Source of the DNA: Roseospirillum parvum
GTDB lineage: Bacteria; Pseudomonadota; Alphaproteobacteria; Rhodospirillales; Rhodospirillaceae
Assembly (NCBI RefSeq): GCF_900100455.1
Contig: NZ_FNCV01000002.1
Coordinates: 1 to 64,000, forward strand
DNA: 64,000 nucleotides
Reading direction: 5' to 3'
The notes below the pieces were generated by a model. The model did not search any database, was not told the DNA's origin, and saw nothing but the letters and a program-made list of their open reading frames with translations. This document shows, piece by piece, positions 1 to 62,330 of this stretch. Positions within the stretch are counted from its first letter, which is position 1, and the number at the start of each line of letters is the position of its first letter. The translations under genes were made by a program, and so were the position numbers.

Positions 1-3
1 GCT

Positions 4-12
4 GTGGATAAG
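4..12 (-). promoter_or_regulatory. Consensus DnaA box at the window edge
   Basis: The minus strand reads TTATCCACA, a perfect match to the strict 9-mer DnaA box. A weaker relative, TTAACCACA, is at 59-67 on the plus strand. GCTGTGG at 1-7 and CCACAGC at 62-68 also form an inverted pair. The site lies about 350 bp downstream of the DnaA-related gene hdaA. One strong box is not an origin, and the sequence to the left is not visible, so a local titration or regulatory role is only a possibility. Confidence 0.4.
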
Positions 13-123
13 CGGCCCGCCGCCGCCGGCTCCCTGGCGGGCGCGGCGGCGGACCCCTTAACCACAGCTCCTACACCACGCAACGGGACGTGACCCTCGG
101 ATCGCCCTCCCAATGGTTCGCTT

Positions 124-254: not shown

Positions 255-363
255 CGGCGATGAGTTCCTCTCATCGCCGCTTGGTATAAATCATTGAATC
301 GAGAGCAGATTCACGCGACCAATCTGACTCGCTTGGCGATTCAGATTGGGCGCGATCTGCTCT
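255..363 (-). terminator. Two hairpins downstream of hdaA, the second overlapping its stop codon
   Basis: CGGCGATGAG (255-264) and CTCATCGCCG (270-279) form a perfect 10-bp stem with a 5-nt loop. A longer imperfect stem spans 302-363: AGAGCAGAT (302-310) pairs with ATCTGCTCT (355-363) and CCAATCTGA (319-327) pairs with TCAGATTGG (341-349). The outer arm reaches into the hdaA stop codon at 362-364. No strong T-run follows on the minus strand, so intrinsic termination is an inference and 3'-end stabilisation is an alternative. Confidence 0.5.
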
Positions 364-1036
364 AGCCCAACCCGGGCTCCAGCGCCCGGCGCAGCAGGGG
401 CAGGGTGATCGGGCGCTTTTCGGCCAGGGCCAGCCGGTCGGCCGTCTCGGCCAGCCGGCGGGCGGCGGCGAAGCTGCGCTCCATGTGGCCGACCAGATAG
501 CGGACGGCGGCCGGATCCAGGGCCAACTGGCGGTCGGCGAACAGCTTCACCAGCACGGCGGCGAAGAGGGCGTCGTCGGGCGGCTCGATGGTCGCCACCG
601 GGGCCGTGCGCAGGCGCGAATCGAGATCGCGCAGCCCCACCCCCCAGCGGGCCGGGGGCCGGCTGGCGATCAGCAGCAGGTGGCCGCCGGCCTCGCGCAG
701 AAGGTTCCACAGATGCAGCAGGGGGCGCGGCGGGTCCACCCGGTCGGCGTCGTCGAGCACCACCGCCCCGACCTCGGCCAGGGCCAGCGGATCGGCCCCG
801 GGCAGGTCCTTGGGGGCCAGCATGACGGCCCCGCTGCGGGCCGCGAAAACCGCCGCCAGATGGCTCTTGCCCGAGCCCGGCGGGCCGACCACCACCAGCG
901 CCGGCCCGGGCCAGTCGGGCCAGCGGTCGAGCCACGCCAGGGCCGCCCGGTTGGCCGGGGCGACCAGGAAATCGGCCCGATCCAGGGCCGGCCGATGGGG
1001 CAGGTCGAGCGGCAGTTGCCGTGGCGCCGGGGTCAT
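362..1036 (-). CDS. hdaA: DnaA-related regulatory inactivation protein (HdaA/Hda type)
   Basis: A 224-residue AAA+ protein homologous to the ATPase part of DnaA. The N-terminus carries a QLPLDL motif (residues 7-12), the usual beta-clamp-binding motif of Hda proteins, followed by a P-loop GPPGSGKS at 51-58 and a Walker B-like LDDADR. There is no C-terminal DnaA DNA-binding domain, which separates Hda from DnaA. Hda with the sliding clamp stimulates ATP hydrolysis on DnaA after initiation. The ATG at 1036 overlaps the upstream permease stop by 4 nt (ATGA), so the two genes are translationally coupled. A longer open frame upstream belongs to the permease region and is not part of this gene. The order permease-hdaA is common in alphaproteobacteria. 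Confidence 0.85.
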   Translation of the reverse strand: MTPAPRQLPLDLPHRPALDRADFLVAPANRAALAWLDRWPDWPGPALVVVGPPGSGKSHLAAVFAARSGAVMLAPKDLPGADPLALAEVGAVVLDDADRVDPPRPLLHLWNLLREAGGHLLLIASRPPARWGVGLRDLDSRLRTAPVATIEPPDDALFAAVLVKLFADRQLALDPAAVRYLVGHMERSFAAARRLAETADRLALAEKRPITLPLLRRALEPGLG

Positions 1037-5249: not shown

Positions 5250-5466
5250 GGGACACGCCGGCAAGGCAAAGGGGCGCTGCCCCTTTGATCCCCGCTGGGG
5301 AGGCCGGGGGGCCTCCCCAGACCCCACCATGAGTCAAAACCCCACCGAGGGGGGCAAGCCCCCCTCGGTGGGGTTTTAAGTCACGGCGGGGGTCCGGGGG
5401 GGCCCCTGGTCCCCCCGGCGGGGGTCAAGGGGGCGGCGCCCCCTTGCCTTGCCGACGCGTCGCTCA
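5247..5466 (+). repeat. Composite nested palindromic element, copy between purN and yacG
   Basis: The core spans 5267-5447. In order: palindrome a (5267-5288, CAAAGGGGCGCTGCCCCTTT), palindrome b (5295-5320, CTGGGGAGGCC...GGCCTCCCCAG), a linker, a central terminator-like stem at 5336-5377 (AAAACCCCACCGAGGGGGGC, loop AA, mirror arm ending TTTT), then inverted versions of b (around 5392-5419) and a (5426-5446). The right half read backwards resembles the left half, so the whole region is one large imperfect palindrome. Symmetry extends outward: 5247-5277 matches the reverse complement of 5436-5466 at 27 of 31 positions, starting exactly at the purN and yacG stop codons. A bidirectional terminator role is inferred. 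Confidence 0.9.
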
Positions 5467-11607: not shown

Positions 11608-13722
11608 ATGACTCTGGTTTTCGACGCCGCGCCGGGAGTCGAGATCACCCTCGCCCTGCCGCTGGGCGGCTGGGGGCTGGGTCTGCTCGCCCTGGCCTCG
11701 GCCGGGCTGCTCGGACTGGGCCTGTGGCGACGGGCCCGGGGCAGTGGATGGCGGGCCGTCGCCGCCGGGGTCCTGCTGCTCGCCCTGGCCGAGCCGCGCC
11801 TGCTGGTCGAGCAACGCCAGCCGCTGCCCGACATCGCCCTGCTGCTGGTCGACGCCAGCCCAAGCCAGCAGGTGGCCAACCGGCCCGAAGTCACCGCCGC
11901 CGCCCGCGCCGCCCTGCTTGAGCGGCTGGCCGCCCTGCCCGACCTGGAAACCCGCCTCGTGACCTTTGGCGAGGCGGGCGACGGAACCAACCTCGGCCCG
12001 GCCCTGGAGGGCGCCCTGGACGACATCCCGGCCGACCGCCTGTCGGCCGTGCTGGTGCTTTCCGACGGCCGGCTGCACGACCTGGACGACCCCGCCACCG
12101 GCCCGGCCCTGACCGATCGCCTCGCCGACCGCCTGGGCGAGGCGCCCCTGCACCTGCTGCTGAGCGGCCGCCCCGACGAGCGCGACCGCCGGCTGACCCT
12201 GACCGACGTCCCGGCCTACGGACTGGTCGGCGAGACGGTCAGCCTGTCCCTGGGACTGGCGGTGGACGGCCCGGACGCCCCCACCCAGCCGGTGGCGGTG
12301 ACCGTCGAGGTGCCCGGCCAGCCGCCGCGCCAACTGGACCTCGTCCCCGGCCAGCCCCGCCCGGTCCGCCTCGCCCTCGACCACCCCGGCCCGACCGTGC
12401 TCGCCGCCCGCCTGCCCGCCGCCGAGGGCGAGCTGTCGGCCCTCAACAACCGCGTCGCCGCCACCGTCGAGGCGGTGCGGCCGCGCCTGCGGGTGCTGCT
12501 GGTCTCCGGCCAGCCGCACCCCGGCACCCGCATCTGGCGCACCCTGCTGAAGGCCGACCCGGCGGTCGATCTGGTCCACTTCACCATCCTGCGGCCGCTC
12601 GACAAGGACGATGCCACGCCGCTCGACGAACTGGCCCTGATCGCCTTCCCGGTGCGCGAGCTGTTCGAGGCCCGGCTGGCCGATTTCGATCTGGTCATCC
12701 TCGACCGCACCGGGGTGGGCAGCCGGGTGCCCGACCGCTACCTGGGCAATCTGGCCGACCACGTGCGCCAGGGCGGCGGCCTGCTGGTGGTCGCCGGGCC
12801 CGGACTGGCCCGCCTGCCGGCCCTGCCCCTGCAACCGATCCTGCCGGTAGAACTGTCCGGCGAGGTGGCCGAGGCCCCCTTCCGTCCGGCCCTGACCGGG
12901 ACCGGCCGCCGCCACCCGGTGACCGCCGCCCTGGCCGCCGAGGCCACCACCGGCGCCCCCAATTGGGGCCAGTGGGTGCGCCACCTGCCCGGCCGGCCGC
13001 GCGCCGGCGTCACCCTGATGCACGGCCCCGCCGACACCCCGTTGCTGCAACTGGCCCATGTGGAAAAGGGTCGGGTCGCCATGCTGCTGTCGGACAGCGG
13101 CTGGCTGTGGGCCAAGGGCATCGACGGCGGCGGCCCCCACCAGCCGCTGGTGCGCCGACTCGCCCACTGGCTGATGGGCGAACCCGCCCTGGCCGAGAAC
13201 GCCCTCTCGGCCGAGATCGCCGGCGGCCGACTGACCGTCACCCGGCGCGCCCTGAGCGATCCCACCGCCCGGCCGCTGACCGTCATCGCCCCGGACGGCC
13301 GCGAAAGCCACCTCGCCCTGACCGACCAGGGCGACGGCCGGGCGACCGCCAGCCAACCCGCCGAGGCCCCGGGCCTGTACACCGTGCGCGATCCCGCCGG
13401 ACCGCCGGAAGCCCGCCTCGCCTTCGCCGCCCCACCCCCGGAGGCGCTGAAGGAAACCGCTCAACTGACCGCCACCGCCCAGGCCGCCGCCCCGCTGGTC
13501 GAGGCGACCCGGGGCACCACCGTCTGGCTGGGCGACGACGCGGCCAACCCCACCCTGCCCACGCCGCGACGCACCACCGCCAACCCCGACACCCTGGCCC
13601 TGCCCCGCCGCGACGCCCACCAGACCACCGGCCTGACCCACCAAGCCCTGATGCCCGCCCCCCTGGCCCTGACCCTGATCACCCTCGCCCTGCTCACGGC
13701 CTGGCTGCGTGAACGCGCCTGA
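11608..13722 (+). CDS. Large membrane protein with vWA-like and glutamine amidotransferase-like domains
   Basis: 704 residues, starting 12 bp after comF. Two N-terminal membrane helices (about 18-40 and 48-60) are followed by a vWA-like segment (PDIALLLVDASPSQQ, then SAVLVLSDGRLHD). Next come a beta-rich region and a class I amidotransferase-like fold (around 290-500: RLRVLLVSGQPHPGTRIW, DLVILDRTGVG, GGGLLVVAGPG). The chain ends with a single helix (PLALTLITLALLTAWL) and RERA. No amidotransferase Cys-His-Glu triad is apparent, so that domain is probably non-catalytic. Similar proteins usually sit with MoxR and DUF58 genes, which are absent here. The function is unknown. The coding sequence is extremely GC-rich, and the stop codon starts the palindromic element. 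Confidence 0.75.
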   Translation: MTLVFDAAPGVEITLALPLGGWGLGLLALASAGLLGLGLWRRARGSGWRAVAAGVLLLALAEPRLLVEQRQPLPDIALLLVDASPSQQVANRPEVTAAARAALLERLAALPDLETRLVTFGEAGDGTNLGPALEGALDDIPADRLSAVLVLSDGRLHDLDDPATGPALTDRLADRLGEAPLHLLLSGRPDERDRRLTLTDVPAYGLVGETVSLSLGLAVDGPDAPTQPVAVTVEVPGQPPRQLDLVPGQPRPVRLALDHPGPTVLAARLPAAEGELSALNNRVAATVEAVRPRLRVLLVSGQPHPGTRIWRTLLKADPAVDLVHFTILRPLDKDDATPLDELALIAFPVRELFEARLADFDLVILDRTGVGSRVPDRYLGNLADHVRQGGGLLVVAGPGLARLPALPLQPILPVELSGEVAEAPFRPALTGTGRRHPVTAALAAEATTGAPNWGQWVRHLPGRPRAGVTLMHGPADTPLLQLAHVEKGRVAMLLSDSGWLWAKGIDGGGPHQPLVRRLAHWLMGEPALAENALSAEIAGGRLTVTRRALSDPTARPLTVIAPDGRESHLALTDQGDGRATASQPAEAPGLYTVRDPAGPPEARLAFAAPPPEALKETAQLTATAQAAAPLVEATRGTTVWLGDDAANPTLPTPRRTTANPDTLALPRRDAHQTTGLTHQALMPAPLALTLITLALLTAWLRERA

Positions 13723-13963
13723 GCCAGAGCGCGCAAGGTCAAAGGGGCGCCGCCCCTTTGAAATCCCCGCTGGGGAGGCCGGAAGGCCTCCCCAGACCCC
13801 ACCATGAGTCAAAGCCGTGAAGAGGGGGGTATCCGAGCGCGCGCGCTCGGATACCCCCCTCTTCACGGCTTTAAGTCGCGGCGGGGGTCCGGGGGGACCC
13901 CCGGTCCCCCCGGCGGGGGTTCCAAGGGGGCAGCGCCCCCTTGGCGTTGCCCGCCCCGGCTCA
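13720..13963 (+). repeat. Composite nested palindromic element with a 62-bp perfect central palindrome
   Basis: Same architecture as the copy at 5247-5466: palindrome a (13739-13761), palindrome b (13770-13795), centre, inverted b (around 13888-13916), inverted a (13922-13944). The centre at 13811-13872 differs from all other copies. It is a perfect palindrome of two 31-bp arms with no loop, beginning AAAGCCGTGAAGAGGGGGG and ending with its mirror ACGGCTTT. The outer flanks mirror each other at 25 of 31 positions from the stop codon at 13720 and from the convergent stop at 13963. It is flanked by convergent genes, so a bidirectional terminator role is likely. Confidence 0.9.
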
Positions 13964-15199
13964 GTCGAGGTTCATGCAGTTGGCGTAGAAGGTGGTGGTG
14001 GCCGGCCAGTCGGAGAACACGCCGACCACGCCGATGTCCTGGGCCAGGACGTTCAGCAGGTCGAGGGTGTCGCTGTCGCGGTCGGTGACCTTCTCGATCG
14101 ACTGGAAGTACCAGCCGCCACCGCTGGCCAGCGGGCCGGAGCGTTCCAGGGTCCAGGTGATCAGCTTCAGGCCGGCCTTCTTGGCCGCCTTGGCGTAGGG
14201 CGAGGGGACGATCTTGCCGTCCTTCTCGGTGACCAGGAAGTACAGCGGCGGGGCGAGATAGTTGACGCCCTTGTCGGCCAGTTCCTGCATCGAGGGCTGC
14301 CAGGTCTTTTCGTCCATCGGATCGAAGCCTTCGATGTCGTAGCGGCCATCCAGGTAGACCGCCTGTTTGCCGAACTCGGGGTAGGTCTCGATCCAGTAGA
14401 GCACGTCATCCAGGTTGAAGGACTGGGCGAAGACCCGCTTGGGGTCGATGCCGGCGGCCTTGTACTCCTCGATCATCTGGGCCGCGTAGTCGTGCTGGCT
14501 GTAGCCGCCGTCGAACGGCATGTCGACGCTGGGGCCCTTCAGCTCGGGGGTGAACTTGCGGCCCATGCCGTCGATCAGGGCGATGCTCTGGGCGTGGGTC
14601 ACCACCGTGCCCGGGCTGTAGAGGTCGGTGCGCCAGCCGGCGGTGGCATCCATGTAGGCCTCGGCCGTGGTGGCGTCGGGGTTGGCGGCGTCCATCTTGC
14701 CGTTCAGGCTCATGAACTCGTCCAGGGTCAGGTCGCTGGTGCAGCAGGTGGCCGAGGCCTTGGTGCCCTTGGCCGGGTCGGCCGGGGTGAACGGCTGCGA
14801 GCATTTGGCGGCCAGCTCGGGGCGGGCCAGGATGTCGGTGGTGGTCGCCAGATCGCATTGCGAGTGGCGGCAGACCAGCTGCTTGTCCTTGGTGAAGGTG
14901 ACGTCGCACTCGATGATGCCGGCGCCCTGGCGGCCCGCCGCCAGGTAGCTCTCGCGGGTGTGCTCGGGGAACTGCATGGCCGCGCCACGGTGGCCGATGG
15001 AGAAGTCACGCGCCGTGAAGGGACCGGTGCAGGCGGCCAGCTTGTCCTTCAGCTTGCCGGCCGGCAGGTCGTCGACCAGGAACATCGGGCGCGGACCGAT
15101 CTGGGCGTCATCGGCGGCCAGGGCGGGGGAAAGCGGGGTGGCCAGGGCCAGCACGGCGAGGCCGACGCCGGCGGTCAGGCAGCGGGTGATGGGGCGCAT
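13961..15199 (-). CDS. Secreted glycerophosphodiester phosphodiesterase (GlpQ-like)
   Basis: 412 residues with a clear Sec signal peptide ([20 protein letters not shown]..., cleavage near ALAADD). The GDPD catalytic entry motif [14 protein letters not shown] supplies the first His and Arg. [20 protein letters not shown] carries the Glu-x-Asp metal ligands and the second His. PELKGPS supplies a further acidic residue. The protein probably releases glycerol-3-phosphate from glycerophosphodiesters in the periplasm. Several extra Cys residues (CTGPF, CSQPF, TCCTSD) suggest disulfides, as in larger members of the family. Start at the ATG at 15199. It is convergent with the vWA protein across the palindromic element. 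Confidence 0.85.
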
Positions 15200-15333
15200 C
15201 TTCACGGAACTCCTTGTCGGTGGAACGCCAACGGACGAGGTGGGACAGAACCGCCAGTTTGCCGACGCGACGTTCCAGAAGGATGACCGATACGCGAAAT
15301 GTGGATGACAGGTGCGGGCGGGCGGCCATGGCC

Positions 15334-24271: not shown

Positions 24272-24413
24272 CTCAAGGGGCGCGGTTACAGAAGGCGGCC
24301 ACTGGGGAGGCCTCCGGCCTCCCCAGACTCAAAAGGGGCGGTTGCCGAAGGCGACCGCTGGGGAGGCCTCCGGCCTCCCCAGACTCAAAAGGGTCGGTTG
24401 CCGAAGGCGACCG
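24272..24413 (+). repeat. Tandem 56-bp repeats built on palindrome b of the composite element
   Basis: Two direct copies (24302-24357 and 24358-24413) differ at one base. A degenerate partial copy precedes them from 24272. Each unit holds the palindrome CTGGGGAGGCCTCCGG-CCTCCCCAG and then a weaker stem, CGGTTGCC-GAA-GGCGACCG. Palindrome b is the same as in the compact elements at 5247-5466 and elsewhere, but here it is tandem rather than inverted. It lies in the presumed 5' leader of the methyltransferase gene. Confidence 0.85.
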
Positions 24414-24945: not shown

Positions 24946-25710
24946 ATGCCCGCGCCAAGCCCCACTGCCCCACCCCTGCCCGCTTTCACCTGCCAGGCCC
25001 CGAGCCTGGCCGGCCTGGACCACGTGACGGTGTGGATCTTCGATCTGGACAACACGCTGTACCCGGCCACCTCCAGCCTGTTCCCGCAGATCGACCGGCG
25101 CATGAAGGGGTTCATCTCCGAGCGCCTGAAGCTGTCCGAGGCCGAGGCCTTCGCCTTGCAGAAGGACTACTTCCGCCGCTTCGGCACCACCCTGCGCGGC
25201 CTGATGCTGAACCACGACGTGGCGCCGGCCGAGTTCCTGGACTACGTGCACGACGTCGACCACACCTGCCTGATCGCCGATCCGCGCCTCGACGCGGCGC
25301 TGGGGCGCCTGGAGGGGCGCAAGCTGGTGTTCACCAACGGCAGCCAGAGCCACGCCGAGGCGGTGTTGCTGAAGCTGGGCCTGGAGCGCCATTTCGAGGC
25401 CATCTTCGACATCATCGCCGCCGACTATGTGCCCAAGCCAGTCCCCGAGACCTACCTGAAGATGACCCGGCGCCACGGCATCGACCCCCGGGAGGCGCTG
25501 TTCGCCGAGGATTCCCACCTCAACCTGAAGCCGGCCCACGAGATGGGCATGGCCACCGCCTGGGTGCGCAGCGGCGCCCCCGATCCTTTCGGCCCGCCGC
25601 CGGAGGGCGACCTGTCCCACTGTCAGCATGTGGTGCGGGACTTGGCGCCGTGGCTGGCCCGGGTGGTTGACGAGGTCCAGGCGGCTGGCAAAGGGGCGCC
25701 GCCCCTTTGA
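24946..25710 (+). CDS. HAD hydrolase, pyrimidine 5'-nucleotidase type (TIGR01993-like)
   Basis: 254 residues. WIFDLDNTLYPATSSLFPQID is the nucleophile motif (Asp-x-Asp) with the family's NTLYP signature. LVFTNGSQSHAEAVL is motif II, and AEDSHLNLKPAHEMGM supplies the terminal acidic residues. It probably dephosphorylates pyrimidine nucleotides or a related phosphate. The last residues (GKGAPPL) and the stop codon are encoded inside palindrome a of the repeat element, and the preceding codons (25668-25699) mirror the 3' end of the convergent GDH gene. The natural C-terminus may have been extended by the element. The ATG at 24946 was chosen to give the family's usual N-terminus. Confidence 0.87.
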   Translation: MPAPSPTAPPLPAFTCQAPSLAGLDHVTVWIFDLDNTLYPATSSLFPQIDRRMKGFISERLKLSEAEAFALQKDYFRRFGTTLRGLMLNHDVAPAEFLDYVHDVDHTCLIADPRLDAALGRLEGRKLVFTNGSQSHAEAVLLKLGLERHFEAIFDIIAADYVPKPVPETYLKMTRRHGIDPREALFAEDSHLNLKPAHEMGMATAWVRSGAPDPFGPPPEGDLSHCQHVVRDLAPWLARVVDEVQAAGKGAPPL

Positions 25711-25884
25711 ACCCCGCTGGGGAGGCCGGAGGCCTCCCCAGACCCCACCATGAGTCAAAAACCCACCAGGGGGCTTGCCCCCTGGTGGGTTTTTAAGTCA
25801 CGGCGGGGGTCCGGGGGGACCCCTGGTCCCCCCGGCGGGGGTCAAGGGGGCAGCGCCCCCTTGCCAGCCGCCGGAACCGCGTCA
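25668..25884 (+). repeat. Composite nested palindromic element between the HAD and GDH genes
   Basis: The core is 25689-25863: palindrome a (25689-25710), b (25717-25741), centre 25757-25794 (AAAAACCCACCAGGGGGC, loop TT, mirror arm), inverted b and inverted a (25843-25863). The left flank from 25668 mirrors the right flank ending at the GDH stop (25884) at 28 of 32 positions. On the left this mirrored sequence is coding, in the HAD gene. The centre sequence is unique to this copy. Confidence 0.9.
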
Positions 25885-39915: not shown

Positions 39916-40133
39916 GCCTGGGGCGCCAGGCCAAGGGGGCGCTGCCCCTTGGAACCCCCGCTGGGGAGGCCGGGGGCCTCCCCAGACCCCACCCTTGAGT
40001 CAAAACCCCACCCAGGGGGGCAAGCCCCCCTGGGTGGGGTTTTAAGTCACGGCGGGGGTCCGGGGGGGTCCCTGGTCCCCCCGGCGGGGGTTCCAAGGGG
40101 GCAGCGCCCCCTTGGCTGGGCGCCCCAGGCTCA
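39913..40133 (+). repeat. Composite nested palindromic element downstream of dppF
   Basis: The core is 39931-40115: palindrome a (39931-39952), b (39961-39984), centre 40002-40043 (AAAACCCCACCCAGGGGGGC, loop AA, mirror arm), inverted b and inverted a (40093-40115). The left flank starting at the dppF stop TGA (39913) mirrors the right flank ending at 40133 at 28 of 30 positions, including a TGA on the minus strand. Unlike the other compact copies no convergent gene is evident on the right. Transcription of dpp should end here before dsr. Confidence 0.9.
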
Positions 40134-49016: not shown

Positions 49017-49153
49017 CCGCCCTTGATCCGATTGTCGACCCTGGTTCCGCTCCCCGGACCCCCGTCAAGGGGTTCACCCGGCGGAGCCGGCGCTTCGCGC
49101 CCTTGACGGGGGTCCGGGGAGCGGAAGGCTGCCGACCATCGGATCAAGGGCGG
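49017..49153 (+). repeat. Long inverted repeat between dsrL and dsrJ
   Basis: Arms at 49017-49071 and 49100-49153 pair over most of their length. The inner 24 bp (CCGCTCCCCGGACCCCCGTC plus AAGG and its mirror) are a perfect match, and the outer CCGCCCTTGATCCG is also perfect. The 28-nt loop contains a further small stem (GGCGGAGCCGGC). The motif TCCCCGGACCCCCG recalls the linker of the composite palindromic family but the rest differs. Its position inside the dsr operon suggests attenuation or processing. Confidence 0.8.
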
Positions 49154-57311: not shown

Positions 57312-57742
57312 CAAAAGGGGCTCCGCCCCTGACCCCGCCGGGGGACCGAAGGCGGTCCCCCGGACCCCCGCCATTTCGTTGGTGCGAAACGCTCGGGATG
57401 AGCAGGGTGCTCCGGTTTTTTGGTTGCAGGCCAGCTTTGCTGGCCTGCTGAAACACCCCCCAGAGAAACACGCCTCCGATAGCCGAAGGCACTCTGAAGC
57501 GCGTTTCGGGGTGTTTAAGCAGGCCGGCTTGGCCGGCCTGCTTAAACAACCATGGGCCCAAGGCTCTGTGGTCGGTCGGCGTGTCGACGCGGTCGGTAGG
57601 TTTTTGGTTGCGGGCCAGCAAAGCTGGCCCGCGTAATTAACCCCTAGCGGGCAAGCCGTTCACCGGCGCGGTTTGGCACCAACGAATTGGCGGGGTCCGG
57701 GGGGACCCTGTCCCCCCGGCGGGGTGCGGGGCGGAGCCCCGC
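57312..57742 (+). repeat. Expanded composite palindromic element after hldE
   Basis: A forward unit (palindromes 57316-57330 and 57338-57363) and an inverted unit (57697-57719 and 57726-57742) flank a 300-bp centre. The centre itself has terminal inverted repeats: 57368-57390 matches the reverse complement of 57671-57693 at about 21 of 23 positions around TTCGTTGGTGC. Inside lie four stems: 57426-57448 (GCAGGCCAGC, loop TTT), an outer AAACACCCC/GGGGTGTTT pair (57451-57459, 57508-57516), 57513-57547 (16-bp arms around TTG) and 57610-57632 (GCGGGCCAGC, loop AAA). The first and last share a TTTTTGGTTGC lead-in. No ORF or RNA gene is recognised in 57304-57839. Confidence 0.85.
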
Positions 57743-58463: not shown

Positions 58464-58703
58464 CCCCCAGGCGTGGGACGTGGAGCCATGCAAAGGGGCG
58501 CTGCCCCTTTGAACCCCGCTGGGGAGGCCGGGGGCCTCCCCAGACCCCACCATGAATCAAAACCCCACCCAGGGGGGCTTGCCCCCCTGGGTGGGGTTTT
58601 AAGTCACGGCGGGGGTCCGGGGGGGCCCCTGGTCCCCCCGGCGGGGGTTCCAAGGGGGCAGCGCCCCCTTGGCAGGGCCCCACACTCCACGCCTGGGGGG
58701 TCC
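58461..58703 (+). repeat. Composite nested palindromic element between the NnrU-like gene and amtB
   Basis: The core is 58491-58672: palindrome a (58491-58512), b (58519-58543), centre 58559-58600 (AAAACCCCACCCAGGGGGGC, loop TT, mirror arm), inverted b and inverted a (58650-58672). The flanks mirror each other over about 35 bp with small gaps: GACCCCCAGGCGTGG on the left pairs with a near-identical sequence on the right (ending about 58702). The centre's flanking AATCAAAA/TTTTAAGT is in the orientation opposite to the copy at 62119-62330. Confidence 0.9.
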
Positions 58704-62121: not shown

Positions 62122-62330
62122 CGCGGGCCGGCAAAGGGGCGCTGCCCCTTTGATCCCCGCTGGGGAGGCCGGGAGGCCTCCCCAGACCCCACCATGACTT
62201 AAAACCCCACAAGGGGGGCTTGCCCCCCCTTGTGGGGTTTTGATTCACGGCGGGGGTCCGGGGGGGCCCCTGGTCCCCCCGGCGGGGGTCAAGGGGGCGG
62301 CGCCCCCTTGGCGACACGCGCCAGTCTTCA
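62119..62330 (+). repeat. Composite nested palindromic element between the hydroxylase and cysNC
   Basis: The core is 62132-62311: palindrome a (62132-62153), b (62159-62184), centre 62201-62241 (AAAACCCCACAAGGGGGG, then a mirror arm with one extra C), inverted b and inverted a (62290-62311). Flanks match at about 20 of 25 positions. Here the centre's outer bases read ACTTAAAA on the left and TTTTGATT on the right, the inverted form of the copy at 58461-58703, so the centre has been flipped in one of them. Confidence 0.9.

What the first reader, a model, noticed from the sequence alone, without database searches (positions are those of the whole stretch)
13811..13872. 62-bp perfect palindrome replaces the usual centre in one copy
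At 13811-13872 the centre is a perfect palindrome of two 31-bp arms with no loop, and its sequence (AAAGCCGTGAAGAGGGGGG...) is unrelated to the other five centres apart from the outer AAA/TTT. The flanking a, b and linker sequences are the standard ones. A conserved frame with a variable, always palindromic centre implies the centre is maintained for symmetry and not for sequence, or is exchanged as a cassette.
Basis: seen in the sequence. Interest (0 to 1): 0.8.

Follow-up and report, generated by a model that had tools for sequence, protein, structure and literature searches.

The report
Swappable terminator-like palindrome between convergent genes
A perfect 62-letter DNA mirror sequence turns out to be one of two interchangeable cores of a repeated hairpin element that sits 77 times in this bacterium's genome, mostly where two genes run head-on into each other, and it most likely acts as a two-way stop sign for transcription.

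Summary
The 62-bp perfect palindrome at 13811-13872 is real. It is not unique. It is the centre of one of 77 copies of a ~205-bp, five-hairpin element in this genome. 29 copies carry this long centre and 48 a short one. The two centres share more than AAA/TTT: AAA.CC......AGGGGGG lies in the same register.

Pairing is kept and sequence is free. Arms differ by 0.2-1.1% within a copy but 14% between copies, and 12 of 30 pairs show double changes. Centre type is almost unlinked to the rest of the element, so it behaves as a cassette. The near-invariant A3-5/T3-5 ends (76/77), symmetry, and 54 of 74 copies between convergent genes fit a bidirectional intrinsic terminator. Termination itself is untested. 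A second genus carries the same layout, 9 of 9 copies convergent.

New here: most copies are flanked by locus-specific inverted repeats that element-free convergent pairs generally lack. At cobJ/cobK the repeat is absent in three relatives and the cobK tail carries an inverted copy of conserved cobJ sequence.

The parts
11608..13722 (+). Upstream gene (704 aa by the caller; only a sub-threshold DUF7408 match), ends at TGA 13720-13722
   Evidence: codon-model gene caller; Pfam
13705..13736 (+). Left locus-specific inverted-repeat arm, overlapping the stop codon
   Evidence: 26 of 33 columns identical to the right arm
13740..13760 (+). Hairpin 1 CAAAGGGGCGCCGCCCCTTTG
   Evidence: sequence; conserved in copies
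13770..13795 (+). Hairpin 2 CTGGGGAGGCC-GGAA-GGCCTCCCCAG
13796..13810 (+). Linker ACCCCACCATGAGTC
   Evidence: 77 genome copies within 3 mismatches, pattern reversed finds 0
13811..13872 (.). Long-class centre: perfect 62-bp palindrome with outer AAA/TTT, the terminator-like cassette
13873..13888 (+). Linker AAGTCGCGGCGGGGGT; its A/G site 6 nt from the centre is linked to centre type
13889..13913 (+). Hairpin 3 CCGGGGGGACC-CCC-GGTCCCCCCGG
   Evidence: missing in copies L137 and L167
13922..13944 (+). Hairpin 4 CCAAGGGGGCAGCGCCCCCTTGG
13947..13979 (+). Right locus-specific inverted-repeat arm, overlapping the stop codon of the opposite gene
13961..15205 (-). Convergent gene: glycerophosphodiester phosphodiesterase family
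   Evidence: Pfam PF03009
5268..5446 (.). Second copy of the element, short centre 5336-5377, between purN-like and yacG-like genes (convergent)
25690..25863 (.). Third copy, short centre 25757-25794, convergent pair
39932..40114 (.). Fourth copy, short centre 40002-40043, tandem genes
58492..58671 (.). Fifth copy, short centre 58559-58600, convergent pair
62133..62310 (.). Sixth copy, short centre 62201-62241 with flipped linkers (GACTT/GATTC), convergent pair

Best explanation
The palindrome is the central hairpin of a dispersed, modular, intergenic palindromic element that works as a bidirectional intrinsic transcription terminator between convergent genes. SHOWN: 77 copies; two interchangeable centre types; strict covariation of the arms; near-invariant outer A3-5/T3-5; strong bias to convergent gene pairs; very strong RNA fold; the same layout with a different sequence in another genus. 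INFERRED: RNA polymerase arriving from either side meets the GC-rich hairpin followed by a short U tract and stops, so pairing and the A/T ends are selected while stem sequence is free. The side hairpins, and often the locus-specific flank repeat, can extend this into one large branched foldback that may protect both mRNA 3' ends. Centres move between copies by short-tract recombination or gene conversion. The flank repeats arose by inverted duplication of neighbouring DNA (template switching on the foldback), shown to be lineage-specific at cobJ/cobK only.
For: 77 copies, reversed pattern 0. Covariation: within-copy arm difference 10/892 and 2/909 versus 14.4-14.6% between copies; 12/30 pairs with double changes, 0/500 shuffles, slid controls 37-56% paired. 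Mispairs are not mainly wobble pairs: 6 of 14 are G.T or A.C, as expected if both strands must work. AAA...TTT in 76/77. 54 of 74 copies between convergent genes and 1 between divergent ones, against 46 and 50 of 388 neighbour pairs in a 464-kb sample (Fisher p 8e-28 and 1e-3). Fold -233 kcal/mol, z -16.7. Genus g13 genome G027: 9 copies with the frame, all convergent, centre of type AAAAGGGCCTCC..GGAGGCCCTTTT with covarying stems. Cassette: linkage collapses within ~10 nt. Stem-loops with 4A/4T borders between convergent genes were proposed as bidirectional terminators (PMC1590033).
Against: No RNA data. The U tract is short (3-5) and the simple terminator scan finds nothing at 13500-14200. 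Most convergent pairs in the sample (40 of 46) have no such element, so it is not essential. Convergent location could equally reflect tolerance of insertions. The flank repeats play no obvious part in simple termination. The mechanism of spread is unknown: no Y1 transposase and no target-site duplication beyond chance. Outer halves of the element keep a fixed left/right difference, so large-scale arm homogenisation is not happening.
Confidence: 0.6

Rival explanations
1. The symmetry is a by-product of DNA-level copying: replication template switching repeatedly rewrites one hairpin arm from the other and sometimes extends the palindrome into the flanks. No function of the hairpin is needed.
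For: Almost no half-changed states and no wobble bias; symmetric multi-base and length changes in both arms; inverted copy of cobJ sequence at the cobK end absent in relatives; flank repeats go with the element. Template switching is known to create and repair perfect stems (PMC8794818).
Against: Near-invariant AAA/TTT ends and the convergent bias are not predicted. Left and right outer halves stay different in nearly all copies. Flank repeats show no patches of perfect match, so they are not being re-copied. L130 and L154 show that half-changed arms can persist.
Confidence: 0.3
2. A selfish, non-autonomous mobile element (REP/MITE-like) that merely survives between convergent genes, where insertion is harmless.
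For: Dispersed copies 90-99% alike for much of the long class; mosaic modules; restricted to one genus in its full form.
Against: No Y1/RAYT transposase in the genome; no target-site duplication; terminator-like ends conserved while the stem varies; same layout kept between convergent genes in a second genus with a different stem sequence.
Confidence: 0.3
3. The flank inverted repeats are older, locus-specific terminator hairpins and the element inserted into their loops.
For: Flank arms (about 75-90% alike) are more diverged than the element bodies at different loci, so the flank repeat looks older than the present element sequence.
Against: Element-free convergent pairs mostly have inverted repeats scoring 6-12.5 against a median of 18 for flanks alone; 3' ends of RNase D and RlmJ orthologues in 13 relatives each reach at most 14; at cobJ/cobK three relatives have none.
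Confidence: 0.3
4. A DNA cruciform site for a structural or nucleoid protein, placed in supercoiled DNA between convergent genes.
For: Perfect symmetry, no wobble bias, convergent setting.
Against: The A/T ends point to termination, and much of the stem is free to vary. Protein binding is not testable here.
Confidence: 0.08

Closest known systems
REP / BIME (bacterial interspersed mosaic elements) and REP-associated Y1 transposases (PMC2817692, PMC1525189)
   Same: Dispersed intergenic palindromes, mosaic modules, complementary changes in arms, frequent location between convergent genes
   Different: One ~205-bp five-hairpin unit and not arrays of 21-65-nt units; no Y1_Tnp gene in the genome; two centre cassettes; locus-specific flank repeats
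Bidirectional intrinsic terminators with 4A/4T borders (Petrillo et al. 2006, PMC1590033)
   Same: GC-rich stem bordered by A tract and T tract, close to stop codons of convergent genes
   Different: Here the terminator-like hairpin is the core of a dispersed repeat with four further hairpins in a high-GC genome
MITEs (PMC10969869)
   Same: Short, dispersed, terminal sequences roughly inverted
   Different: No target-site duplication beyond chance, no parent transposase identified
Template-switch hairpins (Monttinen and Loytynoja 2022, PMC8794818)
   Same: Perfect stems with joint multi-base changes; inverted copies of neighbouring sequence
   Different: Described for RNA genes; here a repeat family plus inverted copies at gene ends

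Membership tests
Bidirectional intrinsic terminator | GC-rich hairpin bordered by A tract 5' and T tract 3' on both strands | tested here: met
   AAA...TTT in 76/77 copies, A4/T4 in most short centres; tract is short and the generic scan did not call it
Bidirectional intrinsic terminator | Located at 3' ends of convergent genes | tested here: met
   54 of 74, p 8e-28
Bidirectional intrinsic terminator | Stops transcription | not testable with these tools
   no RNA data
REP/BIME | Dispersed intergenic imperfect palindromes with mosaic structure | tested here: met
REP/BIME | Cognate Y1 (RAYT/TnpA-REP) transposase in the genome | tested here: not met
   PF01797 no match in own genome, positive in 5 of 14 controls
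REP/BIME | Conserved GTAG/TGTAG-type head next to a 21-65-nt palindrome | tested here: not met
   by eye, no shared head of this kind in the copies printed
MITE | Target-site duplication | tested here: not met
   own counts not above the cross-locus range for k 4-9
Known Rfam RNA family | Match above gathering score | tested here: not met
   only the tRNA in the window; weak sub-threshold hairpin matches only
Rhizobial RIME / ABC intergenic mosaic elements | Sequence similarity to those elements | not tested
   recalled from general knowledge only

The most novel reading that the evidence does not exclude
The element is self-symmetrising: replication template switching at the foldback both rewrites the hairpin arms and copies neighbouring DNA in inverted orientation, so that intergenic regions of convergent genes become giant mirror images, occasionally overwriting a gene's end, as at cobK.
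Probability: 0.3. Interest if true: 0.75.

Novelty: new variant of a known kind. Interest (0 to 1): 0.55.

Why it matters
It gives a natural set of 77 copies in which stem sequence, pairing, A/T tracts and cassette exchange vary separately, so selection for pairing can be told from copying-driven symmetry. It also suggests a route by which terminators spread as repeats between convergent genes and by which inverted duplications reshape protein C-termini.

Tried and rejected
Plasmid collection: no match. Exact frame in 257 Gb of genome contigs: 18 single hits in unrelated organisms, taken as chance; the window's own genome may be left out there. Two apparent intrusions of the flank repeat into coding sequence were rejected after comparison with orthologues: PurN/YacG (purN tail ...LNP is ancestral) and the MoeA end of L016; coding tails as a set show only a small excess (8.6 versus 7.3, 3 of 49 above the 99th percentile). 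Patchiness of flank repeats, expected under repeated re-copying, was not found. Target-site duplications not found. RNase D and RlmJ neighbourhoods are not conserved, so they serve only as 3'-end controls, not as empty sites. Assembly artefact rejected (copies on many contigs, different flanks).

Full report
OBSERVATION. Window 13811-13872 is exactly its own reverse complement, two 31-nt arms without loop; the next longest perfect palindrome in the window is 24 bp. It sits in a ~205-bp unit: hairpin 1 (13740-13760), hairpin 2 (13770-13795), linker, centre, linker, hairpin 3 (13889-13913), hairpin 4 (13922-13944). Six copies lie in the window; the other five have a shorter centre.

GENOME-WIDE. 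A search of the window's own genome (3.5 Mb, 37 contigs) with the frame CCTCCCCAGACCCCACCATGANTCAAA (up to 3 mismatches) finds 77 copies, and 0 for the reversed pattern. I extracted all 77. 29 have the long centre type of the finding and 48 the short type. So this is a common centre, not one odd copy. Aligned from the AAA, both types share AAA.CC......AGGGGGG; the long type adds a stem tip. A scan of 257 Gb of genome contigs gave only 18 scattered single hits to an exact 17-base part of the frame, and 73 genomes of the same family share only single hairpin modules by BLAST; the full element as sequence is thus limited to this genus as far as held data show (one species).

PAIRING, NOT SEQUENCE. 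Arms of the same copy differ at 10 of 892 (long) and 2 of 909 (short) positions; left arms of different copies differ by 14.4% and 14.6%. 69 of 77 copies are perfect. For 13 distinct 62-nt centres, 98.5% of cells pair, 12 of 30 pairs have a change on both sides and none of 500 shuffles reaches this; sliding the partners by 1-3 columns drops pairing to 37-56%. The three outer A-T pairs never vary in that set; 76 of 77 copies begin AAA and end TTT. The 14 mispairs are not dominated by wobble pairs.

CASSETTE. Centre type is linked to one site 6 nt to the right (r2 0.78) and hardly to anything else (<=0.19). Median r2 between all sites is 0.01-0.03 beyond 3 nt, with some subfamily linkage. Both centre types occur with both left and both right haplotypes. 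In L156, L158, L160, L164 and L169 the linkers next to the centre are exchanged as if the centre had been inverted. L137 and L167 lack hairpin 3. The element is a mosaic whose parts exchange.

SETTING. With a codon-model gene caller (89% coding in the window), 54 of 74 copies with both neighbours called lie between convergent genes, 1 between divergent genes. In 464 kb of the genome 46 of 388 neighbour pairs are convergent. Fisher p is 8e-28 for the convergent excess. At the focal copy the genes are 11608-13722 (+) and 13961-15205 (-, GDPD family).

LOCUS-SPECIFIC FLANK REPEATS. Outside the element, left and right flanks are inverted repeats of each other at the same locus but not across loci: local score 18.5 versus 7.3 +- 1.6, 43 of 60 copies above the cross-locus 99th percentile. 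Identity stays above background to about 60 nt around long-type and 35-40 nt around short-type copies. Stop codons of the two genes tend to lie at mirror positions (25 of 54 within 3 nt, permutation mean 6.3, maximum 15). Convergent pairs without the element mostly lack such repeats (scores 6-12.5; the exceptions include other palindrome families and one local hairpin).

ORIGIN OF A FLANK REPEAT. At L086 the element separates cobJ and cobK. In relatives G013, G038 and G023 the two genes overlap by 31 bp, lie 9 bp apart, or overlap by 40 bp, with no element and no inverted repeat (best 8.5, 7.0, 8.0). cobJ keeps the family's conserved ...YTPRWYP end, encoded by CGCTGGTATCCCGGGGACTGA. The cobK end now carries GGCTGGTATCCCGGGGGCTGTGA, nearly the same DNA in another frame, giving WLVSRGL. 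The cobJ side is therefore the likely source and the cobK side the inverted copy. This fits a foldback template switch. It does not show whether the copy was made with, before or after insertion of the element. At two other loci apparent coding overlap proved ancestral, and coding tails overall show only a small excess, so overwriting of genes is rare.

A SECOND GENUS. In G027 (genus g13) nine copies of an element with the same order of parts (hairpin, hairpin, linker, centre, hairpin, hairpin), but largely different sequence, lie between convergent genes in 9 of 9 cases, close against the stop codons. Their centres are AAAGGAAAAGGGCCTCC-loop-GGAGGCCCTTTTCCTTT and covarying variants, which look like two-way terminators. 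The part that BLAST recognises is hairpin 3 with its surroundings, so common descent is likely but not proven. A copy in a related genome has another centre (L062), so centre exchange may be old.

MECHANISM. Most likely the centre is a bidirectional intrinsic terminator: GC-rich stem, A/T tracts at its feet, convergent genes, selection for pairing but not for sequence. 4A/4T stem-loops between convergent genes have been proposed as bidirectional terminators (PMC1590033). The RNA of the region folds at -233 kcal/mol, z -16.7, as a long basal stem made of flank repeat plus hairpins 1 and 4, with hairpin 2, the centre and hairpin 3 as arms. Against it stand the short T tract, no call by a simple scan and the lack of RNA data. 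Template switching, known to make and repair perfect stems (PMC8794818), is the best candidate for how the symmetry is kept with so few half-way states; selection and copying are not mutually exclusive.

OPEN POINTS. How the element spreads: no Y1 transposase, no target-site duplication. Flank repeats are more diverged than the element bodies, so the bodies may have been homogenised between loci or the flank repeats may be older. No strain comparison was possible.

VERDICT. A real, well-supported repeat family; new variant of known kinds (mosaic intergenic palindromes carrying a probable bidirectional terminator). Interest 0.55, mainly for the cassette exchange, the parallel in another genus and the inverted copies at gene ends.

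Noticed in passing
window 300-372; L179 11669-11758; L186 8771-9444: A second palindrome family (GAGCAGATT...CAATCTGA..TCAGATTGGG..GATCTGCTC), also with a conserved frame and variable palindromic interior, near convergent gene ends.
   Followed up: no
window 57317-57740; L178 10559-10941; L193 12970-13647: Longer composites that use the same outer hairpin logic (GGGGC../CCGGGGGA..) around a ~200-350-bp centre with GCAGGCCAGC..GCTGGCCTGC units: perhaps a third kind of centre.
   Followed up: partly
window 49045-49126: Perfect 27-bp inverted repeat with 28-nt spacer and further matching flanks between tandem genes, no other copy seen in the window.
   Followed up: no
window 24302-24382: Two direct copies, 56 nt apart, of CTGGGGAGGCCTCCGGCCTCCCCAG, a hairpin-2-like unit.
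   Followed up: no
L097 and L172 (end of contig C14); L153 (end of contig C27): Two copies are cut right after TTT by foreign sequence starting AGAGC; in L097 it encodes MGRSYSVDLRERI..., resembling the start of IS630-type transposases (by recall), so the elements may be insertion targets; both contigs end there.
   Followed up: partly
window 1-68: Inverted repeat with DnaA-box-like TGTGGATAA and TTAACCACA, near an Hda-like gene at 362-1036 (-).
   Followed up: no
L130 and L154: Two long-type copies with the same half-changed pair (left TATCC, right GGCTA), which look like intermediates towards the fully changed TAGCC/GGCTA of L006 and L011.
   Followed up: partly
G030 and G029 (genus g14), e.g. 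L055, L060, L064, L074: Genomes of another genus carry a CTGGGGAGGCC..GGCCTCCCCAG hairpin module on its own (620 first-look candidates in G030).
   Followed up: no
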